Shown piece by piece: positions 1-62,200 of a stretch of 64,000 nt of DNA. Every line of letters starts with the position of its first letter. Position 1 is the stretch's first letter. The DNA lies in contig NC_134510.1 in assembly GCF_027942865.1 (NCBI RefSeq), positions 37,565,663-37,629,662 of the forward strand. Reading direction: 5' to 3'. This stretch comes from Odontesthes bonariensis (lineage: Eukaryota > Chordata > Actinopteri > Atheriniformes > Atherinopsidae). The position numbers and the translations under genes are program-made. Below the pieces are notes generated by a model that was given only the letters and a program-made list of their open reading frames with translations, ran no database searches and was not told the DNA's origin.

Positions 1-345
1 GAACTGTATTGTCAGCGGTCAACTGTTCGGTCTGGTTCTTTAGGACTCTATTGTCAGCGGTCAACTGTTCGGTCCGGTTCTTTAGGACTCTATTGTCAGC
101 GGTCAACTGTTCGGTCCGGTTCTTTAGGACTCTATTGTCAGCGGTCAACTGTTCGGTCTGGTTCTTTAGGACTCTATTGTCAGCGGTCAACTGTTCGGTC
201 CGATTCTTTTGAACTGTATTGTCAGCGGTCAACTGTTCGGTCTGGTTCTTTAGGACTCTATTGTCAGCGGTCAATTGCTCATTCCGATTCTTTAGGACTA
301 CCATCAGCTGCTGGTTTTCTGCACTGAGGTTTGCGTCCTGTTTGT
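1..345 (-). repeat. 42-bp tandem array coding the receptor neck
   Basis: Seven exact-period 42-base units start at 11, 53, 95, 137, 179, 221 and 263 (motif gtcagcggtcaactg), and the array continues past the window edge. On the minus strand each unit encodes a 14-residue repeat, VLKNQTEQLTADNR or a close variant: two heptads with a leucine every seven residues. Nearly every unit carries an N-x-T glycosylation sequon; the first has NRN instead. No stops or frameshifts were seen across the seven units. The units at 11 and 221 are both preceded by gaactgtatt, hinting at a five-unit (210-base) higher-order period. Copy 2 has only three regular units at 24020-24200. Confidence 0.9.
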
Positions 346-539
346 TCATTACCATGTTAACTGTGAACGAAAAGAGAGCGCACGTCAGTCAGTCAATTAG
401 TCAATACATGTCATATTTTCAGTTGATATGTCCATAATGCTACAGTGTCCCAATTCAGGATAAATAATCATGAGATCGTTTGTGTAAACATCTGTTTTGT
501 GCAGGGGAGCAAATACATGAAATTACAGCGTGTCAACCA

Positions 540-1655: not shown

Positions 1656-2235
1656 TAATTTGGTTGGTAATCCTGTTCAGAAACACATTTTGTAATACTG
1701 GGTGAAATGGTCCGTCTATCCTGAGTAATCTATACATGATGTATTTAGAAAAAGGTTAGCGGAGATGCCACTTTCAAATCTTGCTAGCTCTCTTGCTAGC
1801 TCTTCAGGATTACCAACCATGCCTTTAACCCTTTCTCTGAAAGCAATACAGTCAAACTGACAAATGCAAACCCAGAGCATAAAATACATAACAGATTTCT
1901 TTGCTTTTGTCTTTTTGCTGATACAAATTTGATGTAAGCTGTTGCAATTGTTTATCAAATTTTAGCACTGAAATAGAACTCACTGTAGACGGCCATCACC
2001 ACGATGATCGCCGCCAGGAGGACGCAAAGTATCCCCAAACACACCAGCAACAGACGAGAGTGACAGCGTGCAGCTGCTTCAACTTCTGCTTGGAACAAAA
2101 AAAAGAGACTCAACATCATTGTGGAAAGTTTACTGAAAATGATCCACTGAACAAGAACGATTTCTCTTCCATCGACGATAGAACAGTCTGACATGAAACA
2201 ATTATCCCCTTTTTAATCAAGTAGGTCATCTTCAT

Positions 2236-2530
2236 CCATCCATCCCTTTTCTATACCCGCGTAATCCGTTGGTCGGGTCGGGGGGGGGGGGGGGGGGGGG
2301 GGCTGGAGCCTATCCCAGCGGTCGCCAGTCCATCAACGGGCCCCACAGAGACAAACAAGACAAACATCCACACACACACTCTCCTAGGGACAATTTTTAG
2401 AGACACCCATTAAGCTAACATGCATGTTTTTGGACAGTGGGGGGAACCCGGGGTACCCTGAGAGAACCCACGCAACCTGGAACCCTCTCGCTGTGAGGTG
2501 ACGGTGCTAACCACTACACCACGTGCAGCT
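2236..2530. repeat. SINE-like dispersed repeat with 22-base poly-G run
   Basis: Sequence of the common fish type containing ctggagcctatcccagcgg, catgcatgtttttggacagtg, and the ending aaccctctcgctgtgaggtgacggtgctaacc. It sits in the intron between exon 2 and the TM exon and occurs at the same place in copy 2 (28490-28635 plus 29269-29430), so it predates the duplication. An uninterrupted G run occupies about 2281-2302. In copy 2 the same point reads gggggg only. Confidence 0.7.
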
Positions 2531-3224
2531 GTAATCTCTGTACATTCTGCTATCAGAACACACTGCAACTTACTCTGCTTTAAGAAACTGAATACAAACA
2601 GACCAAACACAAGCAAATACGGAGTTTCTAACTTAGAGCTCATTTCTGGATTTGGCTGCATTTTTTCTAAAAATTGTGTCTGAATGCTCTTCTTTGTTGG
2701 GCTGTGTGAGTCACTGTCAATATAACTCCAGATGTTTCTGTCTTTCTTTGTGTCAGAAGCCTCCTGACAGCCACAATAACATACATTTAGGGTTATCTTA
2801 GACATCTTAAATAAAATTGCTTTCATTATTCTCAGGGTTGGCATCATCAAAGAGCCTACTTGAAACATTAGTTTCTTCTTTTGTTGATAAGATATATTGT
2901 ACGGTTCAGCAAAATTGAATAACTTACTTGATAAAGGAGTTGCAAGCTCTTTAGGGTTCACTTCAGAAATAACTGCCTGGTCCTCCTTTTCCTCTGTGTC
3001 ACAACAACATGATAAATGGAAAAGAAAGAGCTGAATGAATGGATTCATCAGGATTCTTCACAGCATCAGTGATCCCATCCAACAAACACCACAACGGTAA
3101 CAACCCCGGTGTCTAAAAGCTGGGACTGCGTAGTAAAATCTATATAACAACAGAATGCAGTGACCTGCAAATCCCATAAACAGATAGTTTATTCTGAAAA
3201 ACAACGAAAGGTTCATTAAAATGC

Positions 3225-3500
3225 AGGTTCGACACCATTTTCCTCTGCCTTTAAGTGATATTTTAGACTGGAACTACTACGGTAAGAAGACAATTCAACT
3301 TGGCAGTGTTTACAGATGACTTAGGTTCTGTCGACTCCGCCGTCTGGAAGAAGTACTTTACCTTCTCCATGTTTGGTGGATCCGCCTATTACTTTCTTTT
3401 CCGGTACGGCAGCAGACAGCAACAGACTTTTACAAAATAAAAGCCTGTGAGCAACAGACTTTTACAATAATAGAATAAACTGCTGTTTACTGCTTGGTAC
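3225..3500 (-). mobile_element. Fragment of BED-finger hAT element
   Basis: Aligns with part of the hAT copy at 57580-58480: shares tttaagtgatattttagactgg, caattcaacttggcagtg and ctccatgtttggtggatccgc. Only the segment around the BED-finger exon remains; the reading frame is broken and no terminal repeats are present. It lies in intron 1 of lectin copy 1. Confidence 0.6.
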
Positions 3501-3639
3501 TGCTCGGTCTACACCGTGAAACAAGTGCGGCTGTCGGCAGGCGGCTAGCCAACTAGCCGGACTACCTTCGTCAACGCCAAAACGAGGCTGGAACTCGGCT
3601 CACATGACGCAGTTACAACTAAAGAGTGGTAGCTTGGCT

Positions 3640-4562
3640 GAGATGCAGATATTAGAGGGGAGTTTCTAAGGCAGAATAAGCTGTGCTGCAGCGGCGTGCG
3701 TTGAGGAAGTCATCCCAGTAGATGCGTGTGTAGAAAGCCCCTGATAGCCCCCCGATAGCCCCGGATAACAACAACACGGCAGCTATGAGCTAACAGTGCA
3801 ATAGTACGCGTTCATTCATTGATTGGTCTTAAAGTATTGGTGAAATCAAGACAGATAATGCCTTTTTTAGAGGCTGCGCTGTCTCCCGTTATATAGATAC
3901 ATGCAGATCACTGGCTGCTCCCTGCCCAGCCAGGAGGACATTGCCACTTCTCGCTACCTCAGCAGAGCGGACAGTATCATAAAAGACACATCCCACACCA
4001 GAAATTACCTGTTTGACCTGCTACCGTCTGGACGACGTTACAGGTCACACAAGTCCAGGACAAATAGGCTCAGGGACAGCTTCTATCCAAGAGCTATCAC
4101 TATACTGAACAATACAAATAAATAGATACTAAATTTTTACAGTTCATTCATCACCACATGCAATAATGAGAACTGTGCAATACACTTCATGTGCAATATA
4201 TACCATGCAATATGTGTAATTCTGGAAAAACGTGCAATATTTTACAAGTTCAAATAACTCTGTTCCACTCTGTTCACTACCATATATTATTTTATATTTC
4301 ATATTGTGCCTTCATTTTATTTCATTTTAATTAAATATATTTAAATTTATTTTAAACATAGTTTGATTATTTTATAAGCACCTTTGGAGTTGCAACCAAA
4401 TTTCATTGTAATGTAAATTATAATGACAATAAAGGCGATTCTGATTCTGATCTGAATATCGTCCGAAGGACGCCAACTTTCACCAAACTGTTATCGGTGA
4501 GATGAACCTGTTTTATGCCAGAAATAAGGTCCGGGTTTAGAATAACCAAACTTCCCCTTTAA
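3640..4562. repeat. Intron-1 MITE shared by both lectin copies, split by an L2 insertion here
   Basis: Sequence from about 3640 to 3900 and again 4453-4562 matches a single block at 31440-31810 in copy 2. The right end (cgaaggacgccaactttcaccaaactg through aagtccgggttt...ccccttta) belongs to the same family as the hairpin MITE at 52548-52804. The middle is the L2 fragment described separately. Confidence 0.6.
3900..4455 (+). mobile_element. L2/Rex1-type LINE, 3' end fragment
   Basis: A 74-codon remnant of the reverse-transcriptase-ORF C-terminus (3901-4125), with LPSGRRYRS and an FYPRAITILNN ending as in intact elements of this group, is followed by an AT-rich 3' UTR. The tail is ...gacaataaaggcgattctgattctgat, the short tandem 3' tail usual for L2-clade LINEs. 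Strongly 5' truncated. Absent from the paralogous intron at 31680-31700, so inserted after the duplication. Confidence 0.8.
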
Positions 4563-15565: not shown

Positions 15566-15679
15566 TTACAACCTTTATTAGTAGGAACAACTCAAATGAA
15601 CAGTCTCTTTCAACGATGGAACAAGCCTTTTACAGATGCAAACGTCTACATTTCCTGGATGCAAAGTCATGAATTGTCC

Positions 15680-18957: not shown

Positions 18958-21900
18958 CTAATTTAACCTTATCAAGGCTTCACTCTCACAGATGAATTTG
19001 AGCTGAAATTCAGGAGAACTTCTTTTCCAGCTCTGTGTTGGGCTCTTATCAGGGATAACCAGCACATATGAACCTGATCCACCAGTCTCCAGCCAGTACC
19101 TTAAAATGTAAACATGAACAGTATTATCAGCATTCATAGTACTGCTAATGCACTTCATTAAATCAAACAACTTTAGTTTTGCAAGAAACAAACAGCTGAC
19201 ATCAAATCCTGGTAAATGTATAGTTTATACTTTCTGATTTGAGTTTGCATTGAAAATAAATCCTTCTTTTCTTTTTCTTTCTCAGCGCTGGGCCGTAGTC
19301 ATGGTCAATACTTATTTTTTACTTTTGGATCTTACCCAAGAGTGTTTCTGCGTCCATCAATCCAGAAAAAGTTGCCGTTACTTTCTTTTAACCCAATCCA
19401 GTATCCATGGTGCTCGCTATGGTAATACTTGGTGTTATTACTGATGAATTCCTGGAAGTCATCACATGGCGAATCATCAGAAACATTCACACTTTGGTAC
19501 AGACATCAATTATAACAATTGGAAAAAAGAAAATGTACAGCTCACCTGTTCTTGCTGATTATCAATAACAACCAGATCTGCACCGCTGTCTTTGCAATAT
19601 GTTTGACTTTGTGTCCATGTCTTCCAAGGAGCGGGTTTATCATAAAACAGGTAGCACTTTTTCTGGTAAAGAATCCAGCCGCCCTGACAGGGCTGACACT
19701 CTGCTCAAGAAATGGTCGGAGAAATTGATTCATTATTAAATCTGACATATCAAAATCAAATGGCAGCCTTTTTAAACCGACTGATTTTATATAGATTAGA
19801 CTAATTTGGAATTTAATGAATGTGAGGAATCTGACTACAGTGAATTGGTTAGAATTAGTTTAAAAGGGACTGTAGTTGAAATGCCTTGAGATATCATTCG
19901 TTGTGATTTGATATGGTATTAGAATTTTTTCATTGGTATATAAACAAAACTGAACTGAATGATAACAAATGATAAAACTTTAAAAGACTTATGACTGTGA
20001 AACTATGAATCTATCTACTTTTGAAAATGTGCAATATCTAATATTTCCATCCCCGAGCATCTTCGCAGGACGTTTTCTGCCAGAATAAATCCAGCCAATA
20101 TAAACTATAAAAGATATTAAATATTGTTTTCAACTTTATTTGTTGCATGTTAAGTCTGTAAAGTTGTGATGTGGGCTAGCAATAAAGAAAACGGGACATC
20201 AGATGATAGTTATCATGATTTGGTACAAAAGAGGAGCTCCAGTTTGTCCACAAACGTGTCAGAAAAACATTGGGCCTCATGCAACAACCGTTCGTACGCA
20301 CAGATTTGTTCTTAAGTCGTGCGTACAAGTGATTTAGGAAAATTTGCGCATTCACCAATCTCTTCGTATTTTACGTTTTCTTTCAGGTACGAACAGAATT
20401 TACGAGTGATCCAGACCTGTCGTAGGAGTTTCCTAAAATAGTCCGCTGTTATTCCAATCAAGTTTGCTTGACTAATGGATTGTATATTTAATTACTTTGA
20501 AGCAAACATAAATAAATATATACATTATACCACATAATTATGCTGACAGTATTCTGTTGGACTTAAGTTATGCACTAATTGAAGGTTAATTTGACTCTGT
20601 ATATAACGAGGTGAATGGGAAGCTATTTAGATTGCCAAGGACTGTGCTGCTGCAAATATGCAGCTTGCTGGAGCCACAACTCCAGAGAGAAACACGCCGA
20701 TCAAACCCAATTCCACCACACGTCCAGGTCTTCACCAGCTTTGGATTTTTGGCCACTGGAACCTTTCAGAGGGAGACTGGAGACAGATCGGGGGTGTCCC
20801 AGTCCTCTGTGATTCATGCGCTCCCCTTGGTCATCAAAGCTCTCATCAGTTTATCACCCATGGTACATCACATTCCCATACACCGCTGTCCAACTAGTTG
20901 TAGCGCACTCAAGTGTGGAATTAATACAAACTTAAACCTTTGGAAGACCCGAACAATCCTGTGGGGGATGTTTTTCTGGGTAGGGACCAGATGGAGGACG
21001 TCTAAACAAAGAAAGGGACTGAGATGGCCTAATTTACAACAACCTTCGGCCTACGAAAGCATTTGGGAGTGTATTTAGTACTAGACCTATGCCATAAACT
21101 TGAGGGATGCGTTTACAACTTAAGATGAACAAACGAAGAACCCTCTTAGGAGAAATGGGAGACTAACCCATTCCCTATCTTATCTGGACAGTAAATCAGT
21201 AAATCAAAGTTGACGTTTTCCCCTCATCCACCCAGATAAGAGAACCAGATGCCTAAATAGAACTGAACATTACTTTACTTAGAGTAACTTTCAGCTGAAT
21301 CTTAAAACTGTATTAAATGTGTTTGATAACTTTGTACAAGTTCTTTCAGGTTCCCAGCGAAATCACGAGCTGCATTTAAAGACTCTTTTCATGATCCTAC
21401 TTGAAAGTATGACGAAGAAATAAAAATGACCAACCCGCAGTAAACTGGACATTTATATGAAGAATTGCAACTGTTAACCGATGTTCCTTCCGTATCTTTT
21501 TGTACTCCATGGGTAACACGGGAAAATAACATTGTTTGGTTCGCTATTCATATGTCCTAATTTACAGATATATTATCTGAATGTTGAGACTCATAATCAT
21601 CGTCTATGTCATGTTATGTGTATTTGATGTCTTTATATCATAAGTCTATGTTATATATTTAATCTGCATATCTTAACAAGTTGTGGTGTTTTCAGAATCA
21701 TCGAGACAAAAATTAGTGAATTTTCAATTCTTTAAGTGTTATATATAATCACCCATATTTAACACATCTCCTGTTTGTTTTAAGGTTCATGTCTTTTTAA
21801 TAAATAGTTCATAAATATGTATATATATATATATATGTATAATCAACAGGTTGTGTTGTATGCTTTCTTTACGTAATGTCTGTCAAACCAAACGAGAATT

Positions 21901-24900
21901 CACTAAAGTAGCGAGATATGAGACTGATTATTAATTGAAATATTAACTTAACAACCCAGAATCATGGGGCAGTCTGTGGCGTAGTTGGTAGCAGGCGCCT
22001 CATGTACATGAGGCAATAGTCCTCGCTGCAGCTGGCCCCGGTTCGAATCCCACATATGCATATCTTAACAAGTTGTGGTGTTTTCAGAATCATCGAGACA
22101 AATGTTTTAAGCTGGGCATACACTGTGCGATTTTTGGCCCGATGTCAACAAGATTTTCACTCGTGCGACTATTTTGGAGATCGGGCCGAGTTTTGCCTCA
22201 ATCGTGCGTCTCGCATTGTGTAGTATACATAGGGTAACGACAAACGATTAAGCCCTCCCGACCACCTCCCGATCGATCGGATGAAAATCAAACTTGTTTG
22301 AAATCCTGGTCGCCCCTCGTGAGGCTCTCGCACAGTTGAAGCAGTTGCACGAGCCGATTGACCTCATCCTGTCACACTACGCATGCGCGAACATAGATAC
22401 GGAAGAGAAAATTTTCATCAGAAGAAGAAGAAGACAACAGAACAGAACTTCCGGCTTCTTCTTCTTGCAGTTCCGGACAGTCCGACCGCGTCCGATGTGT
22501 CGTGTAGTGTGAGCAGCCAGATCGCATCAGACCATCGGATCGTACAGTGTGAGAACAGGAATCATGAGCTGTGACGTTTTAACCCCTGCGATTCACTTGT
22601 ACGTATGAGCAGCAGCTGAATACTGCGATTGAAAACAAATCGCACAGTGTATGCCAGCTTTATGAGACGGAAGAAACAGAGAAATAGAGTTTCTTTGTTT
22701 TATCCAAAATCTATAAACGTTAGAACAGATCGCCTTACAAACACACCCAGGCAGACATCACAACAGTTTCAGGCATATCATTGGCTGAAAGCGTAGCGTA
22801 AGCCTACGTCACACCCCGCGATTCGAAATCCAGAGTAAAGAAAAAAGATTTGAGACAGAAGAGAATGAAATGAAGAAGTTTTCAGAATGATGCGGCAGAG
22901 AAGGAATGAATCATGAAGAAGCAAGTTAAGAACAGAGAAGAAGATGAAGACTAAGACAGGATAGAAAGATGAGGAAGAAGAAGAAAATCCGAACATAGAA
23001 AGAAACAGAATGAAGTAGTCTAAAGATAAACGCTTTCTGTGTTTTTGTTCGTCCATCGTCATCCTTGCTTTTTATGTTGCACGTTTTTAACCTCCGCTGC
23101 TGCACGTCATCACATAGTTTTAAATGAATCCAAGATGTCAGTCTTTAGCTACAAACAGTACGCAAACCTAAACTATTTGAGTAAAACCGGTACCTCTCCA
23201 TTCACCCATATTTTATTTTTACATGTGTTTTATATAATCACCCATATTCAACGCATATCTCCTGTTTGTTTTAAGGTCCATGTCTTTTTAATAAAAACTA
23301 TATATATATAGATATATATCTATATATCTATATATATATAGATATATATATAGATAGTTGTTCTTTTTGCGCCTTGATGCCATTTTCATGACTCAATACT
23401 CAACTTTTCCTGGAACATTTTGGGCGTGGAGTATGCAAATGTACTATCCTCGTGCACTTAAATACGCCCAGGTGTGATTCATCATTTACGCAGGTCGTTA
23501 ACACACACAAGTTAAGAGCGTTTGTTGAATCTGACGTGGCGTGTTCATACGAGACCTTCTTACGAAAAAAGTGAGAGAAATTTAGAATAAAAACACGAAA
23601 ATGTTCTTGCATGAGGCCCAATGTTCCTCAGAGAAAGATTGGAAGGGATTTGCATATTTCTCCCCCTACAGAGCAGAATATCAGGAGTTTCAGTGTGTAA
23701 AGGACCAGGGAGCGAGCCTAAGCTGGACACCCGTGATCTCTGATCCCTCAGACGGCGCTGCATCAAGAACCCTCATTCAGTCACAAATTTCATTTTAAAG
23801 AAACTTTAAACAGGATAAAAAGTTTTGAATTTACCATCTTATCAACAACATTTGGGTGTTTTTTGATTAAGTATTATGTTGTTAAATGGCTTTATTATGT
23901 ACTTACGTTTGTCAGGGCAGAATTCCTTCACCGGAAAGCTGTTGAACGTCAGGATGACTCCCAGCGTCCAGTTGAGGTCGTCTTTCTGTCTGTTCAGGTG
24001 CTTAGTCTGATTTTCTAAGTTTCCAATCTCCACCGTCATCAGTTCGGTCCGATTCTTTAGGACTCTATTGTCAGCGGTCAACTGTTCGGTCTGGTTCTTT
24101 AGGACTCTATTGTCAGCGGTCAACTGTTCGGTCTGGTTCTTTAGGACTCTAATGTCAGCGGTCAACTGCTCGGTCTGATTCTTTAGGACTTCCATCAGCT
24201 GCTGGTTTTCTGCACTGAGGTTTGCTTCCTGTTTGTTCATTCCCATGATAACTGTGAACGAAAAGAGAGAGCACATCAGTCAGTCAATTAGTCAATATAT
24301 GTCATATTTTCAGTTGATATGTCGATAATGCTACAGTGTAAACATCTGTTTTGTGCAGGGGAGTAAATACGTGAAATTACAGTAACAGGTATGTGTGAGC
24401 CCTAACCATGTATTTAGTACCATGCATGCGTGACCATGTGTTTTAAACCATTTAGGCCTAAAAGGCCTGGAAAAGAATGCCTGTAAAACCTATGGGCGAT
24501 TTCAGAAAGACCCCCTAAAACCTGAAGTTTTTCTGGAAATTCAGCAATTGTGTCAACGCCTACTAAATGATTGATTTCTCAGCCTCTGTAGCAGATAGAA
24601 ACAAAATTCAAAAAGTATTTGAGAGCTTACACCTGTGGCTTTGTTTGGAAACTGAGTTAATTTACATACACCTTCACGAAAATAGAAAATGTAAAAAGTA
24701 AAGTGCAGGAACAGCACTATTTTCAATTAGAAAACAGTAATAAAATAAAATTTCATTTTATATTTAAATTATTTATTGGGGGTCCTAGCAGCGAAGCTGC
24801 AGGAACCCATTGGATTAGTAGCTTTTCTTATTATTATTCATCCGTTTCTGCTGCAATTGAAGTCTATGGCAGCCCCATTAACACTATGGTAAAAAGTTGT

Positions 24901-27900: not shown

Positions 27901-30900
27901 GTTTACATTTAAATAACAGCATCCTCAGGTGGTCGAAGTAATAAAGTTTATAACTCTAACTGCCGGAATATTCTCATAGACATGACAATTAAGATCCCTT
28001 AACCTTAAAAAAGTGCTTATTTCAATCTCTAATTATCAGGACCTTTTTATTAAGAACCTTTAGAGTTTAGGTGTTAACTTTAACCCTTTCTCTGAAAGCA
28101 ATACAGTCAAACTAACAGATCCAAACCCAGAGCATAAAATACATAACAGATCTCTTTGCTTTGTCTTTTTGCTGATACAAATTTGATGTAAGCTGTTGCA
28201 ATCGTTTATTAAAGTTTAGTACTGAAATGGAACTCACTGTAGATGGCCATCGCCACGATGGTCACTGCCAGGACAACGCAAAGTATCCCCAAACACACCA
28301 GCAACAGACGAGAGTGACAGCAAGCAGCTGCTTCAACTTCTGCTTGGAACAAAAAAAAGAGACTCAACATTATTGTGGAAAGTTTACTGAAAATGATCCA
28401 CTGAACAAGAACGATTTCTCTTCCATAGACGATAAAACAGTCTGACATGAAACAATTATCCCCTTTTTCATCAAGTAAGTTATCTTCATCCATCCATCCA
28501 TTCTCTATACCCTTTAATCAGTCGGTCGGGTCATGGGGGGGCTGGAGCCTATCCCAGCGGCGGGGTACACCCTGCAGGTCGCCAGTCCATCACAGGGCCC
28601 CACAGAGACAAACGAGACAAACATCCACACACACGCAGTGGGTCTACATGATGAGATTAATTGGATTACAGCTATAGTTGGGTTATGCTCCTTATCTGAG
28701 CAAGGGTAATTCTCCTTGGATATATGGCGGTGAATTAATGGGATCAGAGGCACAAAGCGTGTCATACCCCGGTATGATAGGTGGCACTGTACCCATTCCA
28801 ACTGTTGCTAATAGAGCCACTTCCTGTTGACCTCTTCACCACCAACAACAACAACAACAAACTCAGGCATTGGAGAAAGATGGAGAACGCAGAGCCAGAT
28901 GAAGCTACGTCCCTCTACATTTGGTCTGTGATGAGCTGCTTGTTGCACAAACTCGATGCCCAACGGAGCATTCTCCATCGCGTTGTTTGTTTCTTTCTGA
29001 CGGCGACAACAACAGGAATATCGTCTCCTTTGACTTCCGGGTCACGACCCCGGGAAAACATCTGGAGCATGCGCAGAACGCAAAGTCTGATTCACCACGT
29101 GCTTCAGCGTCTACAAGCAGGTTTAGAGTGACTTTCAACCCAGTTATCTCGGGGTCTGAATCCGATCCAGTTCTTAGTCAGATTAAGGTGTCTACATGCA
29201 CTTAATAACTCAGTCTTATTGTAATTTAGCCCTTAATCCGATTTTTACAGTGCCATGTAACCCCACTGATGCTCTCCAAGGGACAGTTTTTAGAGACATC
29301 AATTAAGCTAACATGCATGTTTTTGGACAGTGGGGGGAACCCGGGGTACCTGGAGAGAACCCACGCAACCTGGAACCCTCTCGCTGTGAGGTGACGGTGC
29401 TAACCACTACACCACGTGCAGCTGTAATCTCTGTACATTCTGCTATCAGAACACACTGCAACTTACTCTGCTTTAAGAAACTGAATACAAACAGACCAAA
29501 CACAAGCAAATACGGAGTCTCTAACTTAGAGCTCATTTCTGGATTTGGCTGCGTTTTTTCTAAAAATTGTGTCTGAATGCTCTTCTTTGTTAGACTGTGT
29601 GAGTCACTGTCAATATAACTCCAGATGTTTCTGTCTTTCTTTGTGTCAGAAGCCTCCTGACAGCCACAATAACATACATTTAGGGTTATCTTAGACATCT
29701 TAAATAAAATTGCTTTCATTATTCTCAGGGTTGGCATCATCAAAGAGCCTACTTGAAACATTAGTTTCTTCTTTTGTTGATAAGATATATTGTACGGTTC
29801 AGCAAAATTGAATAACTTACTTGATAAAGGAGTTGCAAGCTCTTTAGGGTTCACTTCAGAAATAACTGCCCGGTCCTCCTTTTCCTCTGTGTCACAACAA
29901 CAACATGATAAATGGAAAAGAAAGAGCTGAATGAATGGATTCATCAGGATTCTTCACAGCACCAGTGATCCCATCCAACAAACAGCACAACGGTAACAAC
30001 CCCGGTGTCTAAAAGCTGGGACTGCGTAGTAAAATCTATATAACAACAGAATGCAGTGACCTGCAAATCCCATAAACAGATAGTTTATTCTAAAAAACAA
30101 CGAAAGGTTCATAAAGGTTAATTTCCTCTTTTGTTATTTTGTTGAGGATGACATTAGAAGTCCTTGATTGTTGAGTCAAATACCAGAAAAGAAGAGTTAG
30201 AAAGTATCTGTCCAAAAAATGACCATCATCAGCATATATGTATTAAATATATACGTATATATTTTTAATTCCTCTGTACATTTTTAATTCTATACAAATG
30301 TTTAATTTCTCTGCTAAAGTTTAATTTTGCTACAAACGTTTAACTTAATTTCTCTGTACACATTTAAATTTACATCTTATCTCAGGTCAATTTCAACATA
30401 CAATATGGTTACTGTGTTATAAGTTAATTCTAATGTATGTTATGTTTCTGCTTCTGGTAACAGCTCCAATAAACAGCTCCACAAAGAGAAGAGGAAGCAA
30501 CATGGTAATGAGTTTGTTCTGCTGTTGTTTTGCATATTTCATTAAGTTATGTAAATTATATATTTTGTAGTCGCAGGCACCTGTTTTACTAAGAATTTTT
30601 TTAGTTCCACGACTAAATAAACTGGCAGGTCCTTATTTTTTTTTCTATGTGACAGAAGGAGGAATATGAAGAATGGATAAAAACAGTTGAATTCAACAGC
30701 ATCACCGTGTTGCCTTGGATCTCAAGACAGAGTTTTGAAACAGTAACCGAAAAGCTCTAAAACAGAAAGAAGAGCAACATCAGAAAGTTTGTTTCTGTTA
30801 TCTATCATCTATTATCTATTATAATCTTATAATTATATCTCTATTATCTGAGTTTGTTCTGTTTCAGACAGATAACTCACTAAGTTTAGTAGCTGCAGAC

Positions 30901-32023
30901 TCTTGAAGCTTCACCACAGAATAAATCGTCTGCTCTTCTTCTTTGTCTGTATCCCAAAACATAACAATACGAAAAGATGTTTACAGACAGTGAAATCAAT
31001 GTATTCACAAGCACTCATCACAGTTGTACCTGTTGGGAAAAACACCCGAACTCTTTACATGCAGATTTAAAGACAAAGCAGCAACAAATGCATTCAATGC
31101 AGCGTCACATACACTGCTGAACTAGATCTGAAGACCGGAGGAAACGTTACAAGTATTTTGCATTTCGCGCTGGTGGAACCGTAACCGGGTAGTAGTTATA
31201 GCCTCAAAATGCAAAAAGAAGAAGCAGCAGCAAGAGAGCAAGAAATAGAATTGATAATTTATTGAAAACTGCATTTAAACTCAAACAGGCTGTTGATCAG
31301 CTGATCAAAAGTGTACGAACACAGTCTAATAACCCTCAGGATCTGAAAAAAAGGCGTTTAAAATGACTGTTAATCAACGGACAACTTAGAAGAAACTTAA
31401 GGAGTATATATAAATATATATGAAAATCGATGAGTCATTATTGATGTGCTGCAGCGGGGCGCGTCGATGATGTCATCCCAGAAGATGCGTGCGTAGAAAG
31501 CCGCCTATAAGCCCCCCGATAGCCCCCAAGAACAACAACACGGCAGCTCTGAGCAAACAGTGCAACAGTACGCGTTCATTCATTCATTGGTGTTAAAGTA
31601 TTGGTGAAATAAAGACAGATAATGCCTTATTTAGAGGCTGTATTGTCTCTGCCCTGTTCTCTCCCGTTATATGGATATACGCTGATCTCCAGTGATCTAA
31701 ATATCTTCAGAAGGACGCCGACTTTCACCAAACTGTTATCAGTGATTAGATGAACGTGTTTTATGCCAGAAATAAGGTCCAGGTTTAAAATAACCAAACT
31801 TCCCCTTTAAGAAAGATCTATCCATGTGTCCATCCAGAAAAAGATAACCACAGAATATTAAAATCAGTAGGTTTGGACCGTAATTCTTCCATACAGAGCA
31901 CCTTTAAAGATGCATAAAATGCCAAATAAATCATTAAACCCAGAAAGGAAGGAGTCTTTTACCTTTTGGAGCTGAAGCAACCTTTCTTAAAACCAGTGTG
32001 GCATAATTGATTTCCTCTTCCAT
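18958..32023 (-). CDS. C-type-lectin-like receptor copy 2, complete seven-exon frame
   Basis: Type II membrane receptor; exons 31963-32023, 29821-29886, 28238-28339, 23907-24251, 19546-19700, 19336-19451 and 18958-19099 sum to 987 bases (328 residues plus stop), with consistent phases and GT/AG borders. The cytoplasmic tail starts MEEEINYATLVLRK, with INYATL fitting the ITIM consensus. One TM segment follows (LLLVCLGILCVVLAV). The neck has three LKNQTEQLTAD repeats plus divergent ones, with six N-x-T sequons. The lectin domain has the long-form CQPCQGGW start, YC, the WIGL motif, FWIDGR and FICE. It lacks the second and third canonical cysteines and the EPN/QPD and WND Ca-site motifs, as in NK-type domains. 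The family looks like teleost ILLR/KLR/CD209-type receptors; the ligand is unknown. Confidence 0.85.
20611..20880 (+). pseudogene. Harbinger transposase (HARBI1-like) N-terminal fragment
   Basis: Reads FRLPRTVLLQICSLLEPQL, then a PPHVQ...FGFLATGTFQ stretch, then GDRSGVSQSSVIHAL, characteristic of the N-terminal part of PIF/Harbinger nucleases (HARBI1 family). The frame is cut at about 20885, where repeat X begins. The DDE catalytic core is absent. Confidence 0.8.
20910..21915. repeat. Dispersed repeat X, short copy
   Basis: Direct partner of 10765-12460 (see that entry) with a shorter core lacking the MITE. Its left border coincides with the truncation of the Harbinger transposase ORF, so it probably inserted there. 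The (TA)n tract at 21818-21842 corresponds to that at 12335. Confidence 0.6.
21963..22055 (+). mobile_element. tRNA-derived SINE fragment
   Basis: Contains box-A-like gtggcgtagttggtagcag and box-B-like GGTTCGAATCC spaced as in a tRNA head. It closely matches the fuller SINE at 58175-58365. It lacks a tail region and cannot fold as a functional tRNA. Confidence 0.7.
22110..22659. mobile_element. PIF/Harbinger-type MITE with TTA target duplication
   Basis: Ends AGCTGGGCATACACTGTGCG and CGCACAGTGTATGCCAGCT are inverted repeats, flanked by TTA on both sides (22107-22109 and 22660-22662). The interior has scattered cgatcgg-type motifs and no coding capacity. Confidence 0.8.
24780..25845. mobile_element. 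Repeat with GGGGTCCTAGCAG ends inserted in piggyBac
   Basis: Left end ggggtcctagcagcgaagctgcagg; right end reads tctgctaggacccccacattgctgc, an inverted counterpart. ATTTATT occurs at both flanks (about 24773 and 25852), a possible target duplication. The interior holds repeated wording (gccattttgaatttaatc, ttggcacatag, caagccgca) in two diverged copies about 450 bases apart, typical of an abundant fish repeat. No ORF. Confidence 0.6.
25850..26296 (-). pseudogene. piggyBac transposase N-terminal fragment (PGBD-like)
   Basis: From the ATG at 26296 or that at 26218 (MEDFQWEDISDGSDCEEF): an acidic leader and then a PADATPLQAFNHIFTEELW segment. EMKTFIEMCMG follows, matching the start of the PGBD transposase domain (DUF4772/DDE_Tnp_1_7). 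The ORF runs directly into the inserted repeat at about 25850, losing all catalytic aspartates. Confidence 0.75.
26455..26790. repeat. Dispersed repeat A, inverted copy
   Basis: Reverse complement of 15800-16130: shares cacttcatgcc/ggcatgaag, gtcatgttttg and tcattcactcat segments. Non-coding. Confidence 0.55.
27030..27710. mobile_element. Long foldback element
   Basis: Arms of about 285 bases (27035-27322 and 27418-27708) are nearly perfect inverted repeats, starting ggatttaaaggataagaccg and ending in its complement, around a 95-base loop. Shared inner words include gcgtcgcttact and gaaacggtttcctatggg. The arms have no coding content. It lies in the large intron of lectin copy 2 and is absent from copy 1. 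Confidence 0.9.
28490..29430. repeat. SINE-like repeat of copy 2, interrupted
   Basis: Same repeat as 2236-2530 in copy 1; here it is split by the element at 28636-29268. The uninterrupted copy 1 version is a natural empty site. Confidence 0.7.
28636..29268 (+). mobile_element. CAGTGGG-ended DNA element with short ORF
   Basis: Starts CAGTGGGTCTACATGATGAG and ends TGCCATGTAACCCCACTG, an inverted pair. Contains a short plus-strand ORF (start MENAEPDEATSLYIW at about 28880) related to that at 5562-5747. It interrupts the SINE-like repeat in the lectin intron, so it inserted after the duplication or was precisely lost from copy 1. No matching flanking duplication was identified. Confidence 0.6.
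30120..30880. other. Intronic AT-rich sequence, nothing recognised
   Basis: Lies between exon 2 of copy 2 and the alternative exon 2'. Short repeats of (t)tttaatttctctg type occur at 30240-30370. No ORF, terminal repeat or splice-flanked exon found. Confidence 0.5.
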
Positions 32024-35000
32024 CTTTAAAAATAATTCACCACTGTTACTTCAGAGCTGTTAATAACATCAGTCTTTAACAAGTGACGGTGCTGATGGGA
32101 AGCGCAGCTTTAAAAAGGATCCCAGCAGTATGTCATGGAGAACAAACAGGTTCCTCTTTCTCTCGATAATATCTAAAAAGCATTTGGGCAAAGCACAAAC
32201 AACATGACAAAAGCTCTGCTGTCCTTTAGTTAGAGATTGCTGTCAATATTTGGTTTAATCTGATCTAGGAACTATGTCTGTTTCCGTGCATTGTTGTGCT
32301 ACAAAGGTTGTCATGTTTTAAATTCTGGTGGGTTAACATCCCCTAAATGTGAATGAGACACATGCACATTTCACCCCCCATCCCACTGAAATACATGACT
32401 TTAAAAGATATTTGTCCAGAAGTGTCAGGTTGGGGTGGTGGGTAGGACATGGAGGCAGACTCAAAGGTGTAAAATGAAAAACTTGGTTTATTTGCAAACA
32501 AAGGTTAAACAAAAAGTGCGGCTGAGCCGGATAACAAGACTAAACTGAGGGTCAAAGACATGAATGTAATACTGACAAAACAAAACACTTAACTTAGGTT
32601 TGTGGCTTTGTGGCATGAGAGGTGAAAATGAGGTATCAGGGTATCAAGGTAGGTAGGGTAAGGAAAGATCCGACAAACTGAATGTCATGGTTTAACCACT
32701 TAGTCCGACCCACAAGCAGAAAACTCTCAGGAGACTCAGGGAAGTTTCAAAAGGTTTAATATACAGGTTGGGGTGAAAATATGACAAGATATTATTCCCA
32801 GAACTCGGGTTGGGGTTTCACACAGGCACTGGTCCTAAGGAGAGAGAGCACAGAACAGGGTGAGTTTGGAGATGGTTGGTTGGGTCCAGTATTTCTTTAA
32901 AGTGTGGCTTACTGGGAGTTTTTGGGGTGATCCTCCAAGGGGGGGCTGCTAGGGATTCTTTTTCTGGTGGTCCGTGGATTCTTAGGTGGTGTTGCGCCTT
33001 GCTTGGGAGCACGGTGGAGAGCGGAGAGGACTCAATCTAGACAAAGAAGCGAGGAAAGGAGTCTGATGCTGCCAGTCAGGAACTAGGGCTGGGGGTTGAC
33101 TGGACCTTGAAGGTTTGGTTTCAGAAATCTGTGAAACAGGCAGGAACTGAAGCAACCAGATGTGGCAAACACTCAGGCACTGGAGGAGTGGCAGCATGCT
33201 CCTTAAATGCTCCTTCTTGATGAGGTATAATAGACCACAGGTGTAGAGTTCTCAACGGGCCTGAAAATTACAACCCGACCCGAACCGGCCCGTGGCTTTC
33301 AAAGCCCGAGCCAGATGTAACCCGACACATCAATATGAATTATCTATCCGAACCCGGCCCGACGCCGGGGGTCGAGTTTTCCCATGTTATCCTATGGAGA
33401 CTGACGGGCTGCGGGTCGTTACGGCACCTATGTGCAGGGGCGGTGGCCGAATGCCCACAGCTTACTGTATGGCGGCTCAGGCTGGACGTCCCTGTTTTTT
33501 TGCTGTCATATTTTAACAGCACCTTGCATTTTGAGCATTGCACATAACCTGTGGAATTTCCATCAGAATCCAGCACCACTCCAAACACTTTCCAGACCTC
33601 TGATTTTCCCACTCCTGTAGCGACGGTGAATTCACCTGCAGCAAGTTTGCTCTTCACCAACTCCATCTTCTTCTCCGCTAAAGGCGTGCACGCAGCGGTG
33701 TCATGTCTGTCCCCGCTCCATGCAGACTTTCGTTTCGATAGATAGATCGATCACCATGATTCACGGTAAACAGCAGCGATGATTAATATATATATTTTTT
33801 TTTTTTTCACTGGGCGAAAAGATTAAGCCCGAGGACAGACCCGACCCGAGTCATCTGCTTATATTTTCGACCCGAACCCGGCCCGAACCCGCGGGTCCCG
33901 TTGGGTTTTTCGGGCCGACCCGACCCGTTGAGAACTCTACACGGGTGTGTCTAATTGGAAGGAAGAACTCAGCCCACCGACTCCCTGGCGCCATCTGCTG
34001 GATAAAGAAAACCACAACACCTTCCGGAGAACCCCCAACACTGAAAGGGGAAACCTGGAAACTAAATAGTGAACTGAGAGAGATGGGTGAGTGAGTGCAG
34101 CTGGGGAACAATGGACAGGTGAAGGGAATGAACTAATGATCAGGCATGGGAAGTGAGGGGAAAAACAATGGCAAGACTGAAAACAAGAACTCAAAAACCA
34201 AGACATGAAACTAAAAACATGGGGAAAATCCCATGGGCCTGACATAATTATTTTGTGTATTTAATTTGTGGCGCTGTTGGTCCGCCTATAAATAGGCTGG
34301 GTTTCGACAGGTTAGGGATCTGCGGGAAAACTGAGGGAGGTTAACTCTCTTTTACTTCACAGAAAATCAAAAGCAGCTGAACCAAGAACCAAAGTTCCAG
34401 AGAGTTTAATAATAAAATATATCTTTTTGAACCCTCAATCTTGTCTCGTGTCCTCCAAATATGTTGTGCCCTTGGTGGCCGTAACAGTCTCAAGTAAGTC
34501 CCAAGTAATTTTTTCTTGGGCAAGTCAAGTCCTGTAATAGGTCAAGTCAAGTCACCTTATTATTGCAATTTTACCTGCAGATTCTGATCTTAATAAAGTG
34601 AAAAGACAAAGATATAAGTAACTGTACCCCACCCCCACCCCGTATCATATCAAGCTAACGTTAGCTAACTACCGACTAGGCTAACAGGATAATATTAGCT
34701 TATTTGACGAGCACTTACTGGTCAGAATGGATCTTCAAATGACGGACAAAGTTGGAAGTTATGCTCGATGCTTAACACTCAAGTCATTCAAGTCATCGTG
34801 TTTCAAGTCAAGTCAAGTCCCGAGTCTTTAACTTCCAAGTCCGAGTCGAGTCTCAAGTCTTTTATTTTTTCAAGTCATGTCACAAGTCATCAAAACAGCG
34901 ACTCGAGTTTGTAATCCCTTTGTTCATCTGTGAAGTGTTAATTCCATTGATCTTATCATTCTTCTTCAGTAATGCTTTGTTGTTTATGTATCCATCTATT

Positions 35001-35717
35001 GGATGAATAACATCTGTATCCTAAATGCAGGAATTCATCAGTAACCACACGAAAAAATACGATGATGCAAAGCATGGCTACTGGATCGGCTTGAGCAAAA
35101 ACACCAACGATGTGTGGCTGTGGGTGGATGGAAGTGATCTCACTGAGATGTAAGCAACCACAAACACTCCACAGTTGCTACAGACATCTTAACCCCTACA
35201 ATTCAGGAACATCTCCACCGCTTTCAACAAACCAGAAACAGATGATGAAATGTGCAAAACAGTAGCGAGGTTGAGAAATTGTTTCGACATGTCTTTTTCC
35301 TTCAGTTACAGCAGAAACAGCATAAACCAGAGATCATTTCTCCTCAGAACGAACACAATGAAAATGCAGCTTTGCAGCTCCCCTAAAAGCTTTGGGCTTT
35401 ATTGATCCGAGACACGGACACTATGATACATTAAAATGGGCCATGGTACATCAACCCGTTCAGGTAAAATATTTAAGAGGCACTATTCAGCTCAGATTTT
35501 TAAAAAAAAAGACTGTTTTGAGTCTATTTTGAATAAAAGACAGCCTCTTTACACTGTCCTGTACCCAAAAGTTGTTTTTTTTTTAAAAACAGCGGCGCTG
35601 TAGCTCTTCTGCACAGAAACTCGTAGCAGATGTTATGCAGATGTTATGCAGTCACTCACCTTTTGGAGGTCGTTTCTTTTTGAAAACTACTGAGGAATAG
35701 TTGACCTCGTCCTCCAT
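30881..35717 (-). CDS. Alternative 5' module of lectin receptor: ITIM exon plus ITSM exon
   Basis: Two coding exons upstream of and overlapping copy 2. Exon 1' (35660-35717) starts MEDEVNYSSVVFKKK, an ITIM-type VNYSSV. Exon 2' (30881-30946) encodes EEEQTIYSVVKLQE, where TIYSVV fits the ITSM consensus TxYxx[VI]. Both have clean splice sites. Exon 1' ends in phase 1, and exon 2' is 66 bases with phase 1 at both ends, exactly like exon 2 of copy 2. Splicing 1'-2'-TM exon (28238-28339) onward gives an open 984-base frame (327 residues). No other TM, neck or lectin exons are visible for this module. It is therefore either an alternative promoter of the same gene or the stump of a fused neighbour. 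Confidence 0.65.
32425..34245. repeat. Dispersed repeat A, copy carrying insertions
   Basis: Left part (gtgcggctgagccggataac, ggcatgagaggtgaaaatg) and right part (tgaatgaacta, aaaacatggggaaaatcccatg) match 15680-16360. It is interrupted by unclassified sequence and by the hAT element at 33244-33939. It begins exactly where copy 2 stops matching the upstream region of copy 1 (after tttgtccagaag, 32421 versus 5174). Confidence 0.6.
33244..33939 (-). mobile_element. BED-finger hAT element with 8-bp target duplication
   Basis: Ends TAGAGTTCTCAACGGG and CCCGTTGAGAACTCTA are perfect inverted repeats. Flanks CACAGGTG (33236-33243) and CACGGGTG (33940-33947) are an 8-bp duplication with one difference. 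Inside is a minus-strand ORF (33340-33666) with a BED-type finger: VWKVFGVVLDSDGNS, then C-x2-C (CSKC) and an H...C/H stretch (SSLSRHTVSC). The transposase body is missing. Confidence 0.85.
34490..34925. repeat. AAGTC-rich low-complexity MITE
   Basis: Clusters of caagtcaagtc at both ends (34490-34550 and 34785-34885) flank about 230 bases of non-repetitive sequence. Typical fish non-autonomous element; family not determined. Confidence 0.5.
35031..35149 (+). pseudogene. Orphan lectin-domain exon on the opposite strand
   Basis: Preceded by a good acceptor (ctgtatcctaaatgcag) and followed by GTAAGC. Encodes EFISNHTKKYDDAKHG, then YWIGLSKN, then WLWVDGSD, matching the middle lectin-domain exons of copy 2 (19336-19451) and the fourth gene (60984-61111). 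Its 119-base length leaves the same phase (2 mod 3). No partner exons are visible within several hundred bases. It is intact in itself but isolated and antisense to the rest of the cluster, so most likely a relic of an inverted copy. Confidence 0.8.
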
Positions 35718-36124
35718 CCTTGAAAGTCAGCTGTGAGTGAATAAAGTGCCGGCGTTCTTCTCTGAAAAGGAACAGGTTGCCGTTCCCTTTAACATTTTAT
35801 GTTGCATTGTGGTAATTTGTTACCCAAGCTTTCTGGTCAGAAGTATGCGTGCTTCTGTAACAAATAGACTTAACAGACTTTACTGTCATTCAAAAGCACA
35901 TTCACGATGTACATTTGAGCGAGATTTCGTTGCAAGGCTCCAAGAAAAGAGAAGACAAGTAAAACAGTATAAATTAGAGCTGTCAAACGATTAAAATTTG
36001 TAATCTAATTAATCACAGGGTTGCTGGGAATTAATTTTGATTCATCCCATTCCTAAATATGACTGAAAAATTCACATTTTCTGTGCATTGTTGTTAGAAC
36101 AGAAAGATAAATGTCAAGAAGTTG

Positions 36125-36350
36125 TCAGGACTGGGTGGGCAGGACACGGATGGACTCAGAGGATGTTAAAAGCAAACTTGGTTTTTATTCACAAAAACAA
36201 ACGTTAAACAAAAGGCGCGGCTGAGCCAGATGACAAAAAAACTAAACTGTTGAAAATAAAGCATGACTAAGGAAAAACAAAACAAGGAACATTACTTGGA
36301 ATGTGGCGTGGCGTTAGAATCAGGTTAGAATGAGCTTGTTTACGATAATG
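36125..36350. repeat. Dispersed repeat A, short copy
   Basis: Shares ggcgcggctgagccagatgac and adjacent words with 15680-16360 and 32425-32640. Confidence 0.55.
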
Positions 36351-37249: not shown

Positions 37250-38086
37250 CCATCCATCCATCCATTATCTTCCGCTGGTCCGGGGATCGGGTCGCGGGGG
37301 CAGCAGCTTAAGCAAAGAGACCCAGACGTCCCTGTCCCCGGCCACTTCCTCCAGCTCTTCTGGGGGGACCCCGAGGCGTTCCCAGGCCAGCCGAGAGACA
37401 TAGTCTCTCCAACGTGTCCTGGGTCTTCCCCGGGGCCTCCTCCCAGTGGGACGGGCCCGGAACACCTCACCGGGGAGGCGTCCAGGAGGCATTCTCACCA
37501 GATGCCCGAGCCACCTCATCTGACTCCTCTCGATGCGGAGGAGCAGCGGTTCTACTCCGAGCCCCTCCCGGATGACCGAGCTTCTCACCCTATCTCTAAG
37601 GGAGAGCCCAGACACCCTGCGGAGGAAACTCATTTCGGCCGCTTGTATTCGCGATCTCGTTCTTTCGGTCACTACCCACAGCTCGTGACCATAGGTGAGG
37701 GTAGGAACATAGATCGACCGGTAAATGGAGAGCTTGGCCTTCTGGCTCAGCTCCTTCTTCACCACGACGGGCCGGTGCAGAGCCCGCATCACTGCAGACG
37801 CCGCACCGATCCGTCTGTCAACCTCCTGCTCCATTCGTCCCTCACTCGTGAACAAGACCCCGAGATACTTGAACTCCTCCACTTGGGGAAGGATCTCATT
37901 CCCAACCCGGAGAGAGCATTCCACCCTTTTCCGGCCGAAGACCATGGTCTCGGATTTGGAGGTGCTGATTCTCATCCCCGCCGCTTCACACTCGGCTGCA
38001 AACCGCTCCAGTGAGAGCTGGAGGTCACGGCCTGACGACGCCAACAGAACCAAATCGTCCGCAAAAAGCAGAGACCCGATTCTGAA
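37250..38086 (-). mobile_element. Rex3 LINE, 3' portion, inserted in the R2-like LINE
   Basis: Flanked by perfect 11-bp duplications CTTACTAAGTT (37239-37249 and 38087-38097). Ends in (CCAT)n on the plus strand, the Rex3 tail. The 262-codon minus ORF (37265-38053) is open from just after motif C through EFKYLGVLFTSEGRM, LTYGHELWVVTERT, MRWLGHLVRMPPGR to the usual end LLPPRPDPRTSGR. 5' truncated just upstream of the FADD motif, so not autonomous; better preserved than the copy at 13158. Confidence 0.92.
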
Positions 38087-38231
38087 CTTACTAAGTTAAC
38101 AACTACTATGGGCACTCTAAAATACTCAAACGCTTTCCAAATAAGGCCATGTGGAACTGAACCAAATGTATTTGCTTGATCCAAAAATATAAGCAAAACC
38201 TGGTATTCCTGCCTTCTGCACAATAGTATCT

Positions 38232-60712: not shown

Positions 60713-62018
60713 TTACAAGGACCTTATGAAGACCTTATCATGCTCACAGATGAATCTGTTCTTAAACTCATTATCTGTTGTGTCCCAGCTCTCAGTTAGG
60801 TTCCTGTTAGGGATCATCAGTGCAAATGGACCTGATCCACCAAATGGCTGATTCATCCAGTACCTTCAAATACAAAACATGAAGAACTTGTGAAAAAAAG
60901 AAAAAGGGATACCTATGTGGACTCAGATTGGGAGTCTTTAACAGAAGAAAGTACAGTTTTATTTTCCATAAAGTCTCTCTTACCCAAGAGTGTCAGCACG
61001 TCCATCAACCCAGACCCAGTTGTCGCCCTGTTGATTTGTTTGGTTACGTAACCCTATGTGGTATCCATGATTTTCGTCATAATAACTCTCGATGTGTTCA
61101 CTGATGAATTCCTGTAAATTGAAATGGTGATTATCATAAACATTCACACTTTCACACTTCCAGACACAGAATACAATCCTATCATTTAAAAATAAATGAG
61201 CCATTTAGACAGATTATGTTGTGATGTTGGCACGTTATCAGAGCTCACCTGCTCCTGAAGATTATCAATAACAACCAGATCTGAATTAATATCTATGCAG
61301 TGTTTTCGGCTGCCTTCCCACGTCTTCAAATGATCGTCCTTATAGAACAGGTAGCACTTTTCCTGGTGCAGAATCCAGCCTTTTTGACACGGCTGACACT
61401 CTGTTTTCATGAAATAAGCAGAGGAATGGAACATTTAAATCAGGAAGGAACAGCCCCATATTGTTAAATTAGAAAGTTGAACTTTCCAAACCACCTCGTG
61501 TCACGCTCATTTATGTTTAGCAACAACGAGACAGTTCGGTAGTTGTTTAACTTCCAGACCCCCCCCCCCATGTGCACAAATGTCGCAAGATCTGCTTTTA
61601 CTGTAATATGCAGTTTACATTTACATTTTATATTCCTCTTTGGGATTTCTTCATGATCAGAACGAAACCAACTTGTGGTACCTTCAGATTATGTGTTACA
61701 CAGAGGGCCTTTTGAGTGGGATTTAAAACTATTTATGTTTAATCCTTTTCCTTACCGACATACACAAAAGAATTACCACTGTGTAAATAATCTCCAGGTA
61801 CTTTTTGAAAAATGATTTCTCTTGAGAGATGATTTTAAAGTTAAATTGCATCGTCAACCTAGTGAAGAACTCACTTTTGTCGGGGCAGAAGTCCTTGACT
61901 GGGAAGTTGTCGAATTTCAGGATGACTCCCAGCGTCCTGTTGTGATCATCTCTTTCTCTGCTCAGCTCCTCAGTGATGTTCCTGAGGTGTGCTTCCTGTT
62001 GATTCATCATCACGCTGA
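60713..62018 (-). CDS. C-type-lectin-like receptor, 3' exons of a fourth module
   Basis: Four exons with canonical borders: neck 61875-62018, lectin domain 61249-61400, 60984-61111 and 60713-60863 (575 bases, completing a frame when one base comes from the upstream exon, as in copy 2). The neck is short: MMNQQEAHLRNITEELSRE, no 14-residue repeats, two sequons (NIT, NRT). The domain has CQPCQKGW, EKCYLF, KHCID, YHIGLRNQ, WVWVDGRAD, GGSGPFAL, TESWD and FICEHD, ending RSL-stop. Like copy 2 it lacks the second and third canonical cysteines and the EPN/WND Ca motifs. TM and cytoplasmic exons must lie right of the window; none was found in 62019-64000. A minus-strand AATAAA at 60636-60641 is a plausible polyadenylation signal. 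Confidence 0.88.
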
Positions 62019-62200
62019 CTATGAAAGAGAGGACACCAGTCTCCAGTCAGTCCTCATCCTTATGGTTTTACTAGAGAAGTATTATGTTCAAATCTACACC
62101 CACTCTTAAGTTTTCCGGCCAACTTTAGGACAAATGTCATTCAGAATTCAGAATTCATACATAAACTCACATGACTGGTACAAAATTTGATATATTATCT

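What the first reader, a model, noticed from the sequence alone, without database searches (positions are those of the whole stretch)
28238..35717. Phase-matched exon cassettes: one lectin locus with ITIM-only or ITIM+ITSM tails
Two first exons (32023 and 35717) and two second exons (29821-29886 and 30881-30946, both 66 bases and phase 1-1) lie upstream of a single TM exon. Any combination keeps the frame. One route gives INYATL only; the other gives VNYSSV plus TIYSVV, an ITIM followed by an ITSM as in PD-1/Siglec-type tails. ITSM-bearing C-type lectins would be an unusual signalling design.
Basis: partly seen in the sequence, partly recalled or inferred. Interest (0 to 1): 0.82.

Follow-up and report, generated by a model that had tools for sequence, protein, structure and literature searches.

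The report
Fish lectin-receptor gene with signalling tail exons
A pejerrey-type fish immune gene of the natural-killer lectin family carries two tyrosine signalling motifs in its tail; that pairing turns out to be common in its fish relatives, and the one annotated product seen joins both proposed alternative exons rather than choosing between them.

Summary
The exons are real. On the minus strand: first exons 1a (35717-35660) and 1b (32023-31963), two 66-base phase 1-1 exons 2a (30946-30881) and 2b (29886-29821), TM (28339-28238), stalk and three CTLD exons to a stop at 18958. All eight combinations tested stay in frame. The "two routes" reading is not supported as stated: a database protein of Odontesthes bonariensis (P0002) is letter for letter 1b+2a+2b+body, 350/350 aa, so INYATL plus TIYSVV with both second exons together. 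None of 153 fetched proteins carries exon 1a, which resembles gene-C-type first exons (16/19 with Leuresthes P0137, 14/19 with P0092). Exon 2b has lost its tyrosine (AVISEV). The ITSM is not peculiar to this locus: of the 153, 105 have the exon-1 tail, 85 of these a second tyrosine, 66 of 85 match TxYxx[VI] (57 with an ITIM before it), spacing 22 residues in 71 of 85. This is an ordinary member of a percomorph KLR/CD94-like lectin cluster. Of interest are the near-constant ITIM-22-ITSM tail, not described in the papers searched, and the next gene (A), whose tail has lost every tyrosine motif.

The parts
35660..35717 (-). exon 1a, MEDEVNYSSVVFKKKRPPK; intact ITIM-type first exon, use unproven, gene-C-like
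   Evidence: donor AAG|GTGAGT; 16/19 to P0137, 14/19 to P0092; in none of 153 fetched proteins
31963..32023 (-). exon 1b, MEEEINYATLVLRKVASAPK; first coding exon of the annotated gene-B protein (ITIM INYATL)
   Evidence: present in P0002
30881..30946 (-). exon 2a, DKEEEQTIYSVVKLQESAATKL; ITSM-type motif TIYSVV, 66 nt, phase 1-1
   Evidence: present in P0002
29821..29886 (-). exon 2b, EEKEDRAVISEVNPKELATPLS; exon-2-like cassette without the tyrosine, 66 nt, phase 1-1
   Evidence: present in P0002; same stretch in P0001 and in Leuresthes P0004
28238..28339 (-). transmembrane exon, 102 nt, phase 1-1; no charged residue inside the TM by eye
   Evidence: family TM screen
23907..24251 (-). stalk exon with 14-residue repeats (42-nt unit), phase 1-1
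   Evidence: modelled within one long helix, residues 81-200
19546..19700 (-). CTLD exon 1
   Evidence: (PF00059, 58.3 bits against cut-off 22.6)
19336..19451 (-). CTLD exon 2
18958..19099 (-). CTLD exon 3 with stop codon
4716..4776 (-). gene A exon 1b', MEEEINSDTLVLRKVASAPK; ITIM tyrosine lost
   Evidence: 3 substitutions in 61 nt against 1b, all within 5 nt; P0001 begins with it
2928..2993 (-). gene A exon 2b'; no exon 2a was found in gene A
1984..2085 (-). gene A TM exon
1..360 (-). gene A stalk exon (cut by the window end)
   Evidence: first 196 aa of P0001 read from the window exons of gene A
3221..3681 (-). stretch, partly of repeat pieces, that stands in gene A where gene B has the stretch with exon 2a
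   Evidence: pieces match 57848-58169, 62286-62338, 63445-63506 and 52397-52462; for the A/B collinearity
35028..35150 (+). CTLD exon-2 relic on the opposite strand, between 1a and 1b
   Evidence: best E 1.4e-11
60713..62019 (-). gene C: stalk and CTLD exons; its first exons must lie beyond the window
   Evidence: protein P0092

Best explanation
Gene B is a type II, non-classical C-type lectin-like receptor of the percomorph fish KLR/CD94-like kind. Its annotated product is 1b-2a-2b-TM-stalk-CTLD: an N-terminal tail with ITIM INYATL (Tyr7), then ITSM-type TIYSVV (Tyr29) 22 residues later, then a tyrosine-less third cassette, a TM without charge, a coiled-coil stalk and a CTLD without the calcium/sugar motifs. 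Most likely (inferred) ligand binding lets Src-family kinases phosphorylate both tyrosines, which recruit SHP-1/SHP-2 through their two SH2 domains and inhibit the cell; the ITSM site could also be taken by SH2D1A (SAP), turning the signal. Exon 1a is most likely a left-over or rarely used first exon of the gene-C type. Shown: gene structure, identity with an annotated protein, motif conservation, tail loss in gene A. Inferred: phosphorylation, partners, outcome.
Against: No transcript reads were seen; P0002 is an annotation whose 'isoform 2' label implies another isoform not seen, and its 90% cluster holds a second, unseen member. 19 of 85 second tyrosines do not fit TxYxx[VI]; in the first 120 proteins 8 of 76 fit the ITIM pattern instead. 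20 of 105 tails have no second tyrosine at that place. The proteins are not independent (several per species). Tilapia P0048 and P0054 have K or E inside the TM (by eye) and P0052 an E, so not all relatives lack TM charge. Motif matches do not prove phosphorylation. The tail is mostly below pLDDT 50 in the model, so nothing structural supports it.
Confidence: 0.78

Rival explanations
1. One reading: two promoters and two exon-2 choices give one ITIM-only and one ITIM+ITSM receptor from one gene.
For: All needed exons and splice sites are intact and in frame. P0002 is labelled isoform 2, so a second isoform is annotated. Grass carp ILLR lectin genes are alternatively spliced (passages of PMC4528194).
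Against: The seen isoform has both 2a and 2b. None of 153 fetched proteins has 1a. An ITIM-only tail of the 1b-2b kind was seen as a protein of another species (Leuresthes P0004), not as an isoform of gene B.
Confidence: 0.12
2. Exon 1a is a real alternative first exon of gene B, used in some tissue, giving VNYSSV in place of INYATL, with 2a and 2b both included.
For: Intact reading frame and perfect donor; 16/19 identical to the first exon of Leuresthes P0137. The flank upstream of 1a resembles that of 1b weakly (score reached by 2 of 500 shuffles), and both have the same dispersed repeat 386 and 381 bases upstream, so 1a may keep an old promoter region. I raised this from 0.2 to 0.25 for that reason.
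Against: No protein seen with it; a CTLD relic on the other strand lies between 1a and 1b, pointing to remains of another gene; the sequence after 1a does not resemble that after 1b (152 of 500 shuffles reach the score).
Confidence: 0.25
3. The second motif works as a plain second ITIM-like SHP site, with no switch function; ITSM is only a label.
For: In the first 120 proteins the threonine is replaced by A, V, S, I or P in 13 of 76 while V/I/L at +3 stays in 75 of 76.
Against: Threonine at -2 in 70 of 85 is more than loose ITIM use would need.
Confidence: 0.45

Closest known systems
Cichlid killer cell lectin-like receptors (cKLR; Sato et al. 2003, not read, known here from recall and from passages of PMC514892 and PMC3322459)
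   Same: Type II receptor, stalk, CTLD without canonical calcium/sugar residues, multigene cluster; a Nile tilapia relative (P0048) is among the hits with a similar tail
   Different: Identity with a named cKLR gene was not tested; the exon 2a/2b pair with a tyrosine-less copy is described here for this lineage only
Mammalian inhibitory NK/myeloid lectins (CD94/NKG2A, CLEC12A/B, DCIR)
   Same: Type II, ITIM in the N-terminal tail of the inhibitory members (recalled), CTLD fold
   Different: The fish tail adds TxYxx[VI] 22 residues after the ITIM; mammalian members are not known to carry an ITSM (recalled)
PD-1, Siglec and SLAM-family ITIM/ITSM tails
   Same: ITIM then ITSM in N-to-C order at similar spacing in PD-1 (recalled), textbook TxYxx[VI]
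   Different: Those are immunoglobulin-type, type I proteins; here the tail is N-terminal, so the ITIM lies far from the membrane and the ITSM nearer to it
Catfish LITR 1.1b
   Same: Teleost receptor with ITIMs and an ITSM and SHP-1-dependent inhibition (passages of PMC4810170)
   Different: Immunoglobulin-type receptor, no lectin domain (recalled)
Fish ILLR (immune-related lectin-like receptors)
   Same: Teleost lectin-like receptors with alternative splicing (passages of PMC4528194)
   Different: Cyprinid genes; relation to this family not tested here

Membership tests
Teleost KLR/CD94-like lectin receptors | C-type lectin domain | tested here: met
   PF00059 58.3 bits, cut-off 22.6; CTLD fold
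Teleost KLR/CD94-like lectin receptors | No canonical EPN/QPD and WND calcium/sugar motifs | tested here: met
   None in P0002; 0 of 153 fetched proteins in the C-terminal part searched
Teleost KLR/CD94-like lectin receptors | Type II layout: short tail, TM, stalk, CTLD, in a tandem gene cluster | tested here: met
   Gene B complete, genes A and C in part, on one strand
Teleost KLR/CD94-like lectin receptors | Groups with named cKLR genes in a tree | not tested
   No named cKLR sequence was fetched and no tree was built; placement of cKLR in group V or II is itself disputed (PMC514892 passages)
ITIM+ITSM receptors | ITIM [ILVS]xYxx[ILV] and ITSM TxYxx[VI] in one cytoplasmic tail | tested here: met
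   INYATL and TIYSVV in P0002; motif definitions recalled
ITIM+ITSM receptors | Phosphorylated motifs bind SHP-1/SHP-2 and SH2D1A | not testable with these tools
   needs peptide binding or pull-down
Mutually exclusive (alternative cassette) exons | One or the other exon in each transcript | tested here: not met
   the one product seen, an annotation and not a read, contains both 2a and 2b; other isoforms unseen

The most novel reading that the evidence does not exclude
Percomorph fishes have a clustered family of lectin receptors built on a near-constant ITIM-22 residues-ITSM tail, a lectin counterpart of PD-1/SLAM switch receptors. Tail exons are duplicated and their tyrosines erased gene by gene, making near-identical ligand-binding heads with full, partial or silent tails (gene B with two motifs, gene A with none), so that the cluster tunes switch signalling by exon gain and loss.
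Probability: 0.3. Interest if true: 0.6.

Novelty: new member of a known kind. Interest (0 to 1): 0.33.

Why it matters
The locus itself is an ordinary member of a fish lectin-receptor cluster. What would matter is the family-wide tail: if the second motif binds SH2D1A or SHP-2 as an ITSM, lectin-type NK-like receptors of fishes use switch signalling that mammals keep mostly in immunoglobulin-type receptors (recalled). The A/B pair is a natural test, since stalk end plus CTLD are 87% identical over 248 residues and only B keeps tail motifs.

Tried and rejected
Mutually exclusive exon use: not favoured, because P0002 holds both exons. Exon 1a as a recent copy of 1b: not favoured, because 1a is nearer to gene-C-type first exons and the sequence after it does not resemble that after 1b (152 of 500 shuffles reach the score). 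An old common origin of the two upstream flanks is possible: the same dispersed repeat (also at 15663-15836) lies 381 bases upstream of 1b and 386 upstream of 1a, and the 380-odd bases between are weakly alike (2 of 500 shuffles; against gene A's flank 14 of 500). Loss of the tyrosine in 2b as a recent accident: rejected because Leuresthes P0004 has the same AVISEVNPKELATP. Second cassettes without tyrosine are also visible in Melanotaenia P0006 and Fundulus P0022 (by eye, exon borders not seen). A tail-only protein search gave only 8 candidates and 3 hits, too few for family counts. In the TM screen 10 of 105 were flagged TM-less; 3 of these (P0038, P0048, P0054) are errors of my cut-off pattern, by eye, leaving 7. 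Fold comparison does not separate group II from NK-type lectins: Mincle 18.1, NKp80 17.4 and LLT1 17.3 are tied. Literature: ITSM with C-type lectin and teleost gave 3 papers, all listed; immunoreceptor tyrosine-based switch with C-type lectin and fish gave 33, 20 listed; four of five terms gave 10, 8 listed. No listed title or abstract start describes an ITSM in a teleost C-type lectin; the texts were not read for this. That is a statement about these searches only.

Full report
What is there. The window holds part of a tandem cluster of type II lectin-receptor genes on the minus strand. Gene B, the subject of the finding, has two possible first exons, 1a (35717-35660) and 1b (32023-31963), two 66-base second exons, 2a (30946-30881) and 2b (29886-29821), a TM exon (28339-28238), a stalk exon (24251-23907) and three CTLD exons (19700-19546, 19451-19336, 19099-18958 with the stop). 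Every exon from 2a to the stalk has phase 1-1, so frame compatibility is general here: none, either or both second exons can follow either first exon, and all eight combinations read to one terminal stop.

Which combination is made. The protein search found an annotated protein of Odontesthes bonariensis, P0002 ("PAE49_005798 isoform 2-T2"), on a contig of 42,246,571 bases. It is identical, 350 of 350 residues, to 1b+2a+2b+TM+stalk+CTLD read from the window. The window is therefore from this species or something extremely close (inference). This product has the ITIM INYATL at Tyr7, the ITSM-type TIYSVV at Tyr29, and a third cassette, AVISEV, without the tyrosine. Limits: it is an annotation, not a read; the label implies another isoform; the 90% cluster has a second member that I could not see.

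Exon 1a. It has an intact frame and a perfect donor, but none of the 153 fetched proteins carries it, and a search on the 1a-2a tail alone returned P0002, P0001 and P0005 only, 3 of 8 candidates. Its best matches are first exons of another gene type: Leuresthes tenuis P0137, 16 of 19 residues, and P0092, 14 of 19. P0092 is gene C, whose stalk and CTLD exons lie at the right end of the window. Between 1a and 1b lies a CTLD exon relic on the plus strand, 35028-35150. On the other side, the same dispersed repeat lies 386 bases upstream of 1a and 381 upstream of 1b, and the flanks between repeat and exon are weakly alike (2 of 500 shuffles reach the score), while the sequences after the exons are not (152 of 500). 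I read 1a as a first exon, with an old upstream region, left from or copied from a gene-C-like gene, with possible but unproven use by gene B.

Is the ITSM unusual? Among the relatives fetched, no. Of 153 proteins from two searches (the 120 listed of 172 hits; 33 further from the 75), 105 have the exon-1 tail by pattern. Of these 85 have a second tyrosine 17 to 28 residues on; T at -2 in 70 of 85, V or I at +3 in 81 of 85, full TxYxx[VI] in 66 of 85, together with an ITIM in 57, and a spacing of exactly 22 residues in 71 of 85. The named sources are percomorph and other spiny-rayed fishes (names); they are not independent, and several species give more than one. 20 of 105 lack a second tyrosine at that place; one search lists the 15 from the first 120. 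In the first 120 the second motif fits the ITIM pattern in 8 of 76. More than one second cassette with a tyrosine motif was seen in 7 of the 94 tails (a looser pattern). So gain and loss of this cassette recur.

Gene A. The left end of the window carries a close copy: exon 1b' (4776-4716), 2b' (2993-2928), TM (2085-1984) and the start of the stalk. The first 196 residues of P0001 read directly from it. Against 1b its first exon has 3 substitutions in 61 bases, at 32005, 32004 and 32001 in gene-B coordinates, turning INYATL into INSDTL; one other place in the 732-column alignment has as dense a cluster, so this alone is no proof of selection. Where gene B has the stretch with exon 2a, gene A has a 461-base stretch that is in part pieces of a repeat found elsewhere in the window. 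The result is a protein with no tail motif but with stalk end plus CTLD 87% identical over 248 residues: a possible silent partner of gene B.

Mechanism. Shown: structure, identity with an annotated product, motif conservation, CTLD identity and the absence of EPN/QPD/WND motifs in the parts searched of all 153. The TM of gene B carries no charged residue by eye. In the family screen 95 of 105 passed the TM test and 2 of these had a charge in the central part; by eye tilapia P0048 has a lysine and P0054 a glutamate there too, which my pattern missed. So adaptor pairing of the DAP12 kind is unlikely for gene B (recalled from mammalian receptors) but not excluded for all relatives. Inferred: both tyrosines are phosphorylated and recruit SHP-1/SHP-2; SH2D1A may compete at the second. 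Passages of PMC4810170 state that ITSMs can recruit SHPs, SH2D1A and EAT-2, list SH2D1A among counterparts, and describe a teleost immunoglobulin-type receptor with ITIMs and an ITSM. The AlphaFold model gives a disordered tail, a long helix (81-200) and a CTLD of mixed confidence (mean pLDDT of the whole model 72.4); the CTLD fits both group II lectins such as Mincle and NK-type ones such as NKp80 and LLT1 with tied Z, so fold does not decide the group. PMC514892 (passages) reports that the group V or II placement of cichlid KLR was disputed.

Verdict. Observation confirmed. Interpretation partly supported: the ITIM+ITSM lectin is real but common among its relatives, and the alternative-cassette design is contradicted by the one product seen. 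Interest lies in the family-level tail and in the A/B pair.

Noticed in passing
1-4776 (gene A) against 18958-32023 (gene B): Neighbouring copy with all tail tyrosine motifs lost: INYATL changed to INSDTL and the exon-2a stretch replaced by a stretch partly of repeat pieces; possible silent or decoy partner.
   Followed up: partly
35028-35150, + strand: Intact-looking CTLD middle exon in the opposite orientation, alone between 1a and 1b.
   Followed up: partly
P0092 (gene C, 60713-62019) and P0083, P0085, P0091, P0110, P0121, P0122: Seven annotated proteins keep the exon-1 tail but lack the TM, as if the symmetric TM exon were skipped in frame; may be annotation error or a cytosolic form.
   Followed up: partly
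32404-32547, 36103-36249 and 15663-15836: Copies of one dispersed repeat, two of them 381 and 386 bases upstream of exons 1b and 1a; gene A lacks it at that place.
   Followed up: partly
1-360 and 23907-24251: Stalk exon built of a 42-base unit (14 residues, VLKNQTEQLTADNR); copy number differs strongly between gene A (P0001, 468 aa) and gene B (350 aa).
   Followed up: no
P0002 residues 210-341: CTLD keeps Cys210, 215, 218, 229, 249 and 341 but lacks the second inner cysteine pair that relatives such as P0016 keep (by eye).
   Followed up: no
43774-46848, + strand: Open frame of 1024 codons that looks by eye like a LINE-type reverse transcriptase; another reverse-transcriptase-like frame at 37265-38095, - strand.
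   Followed up: no
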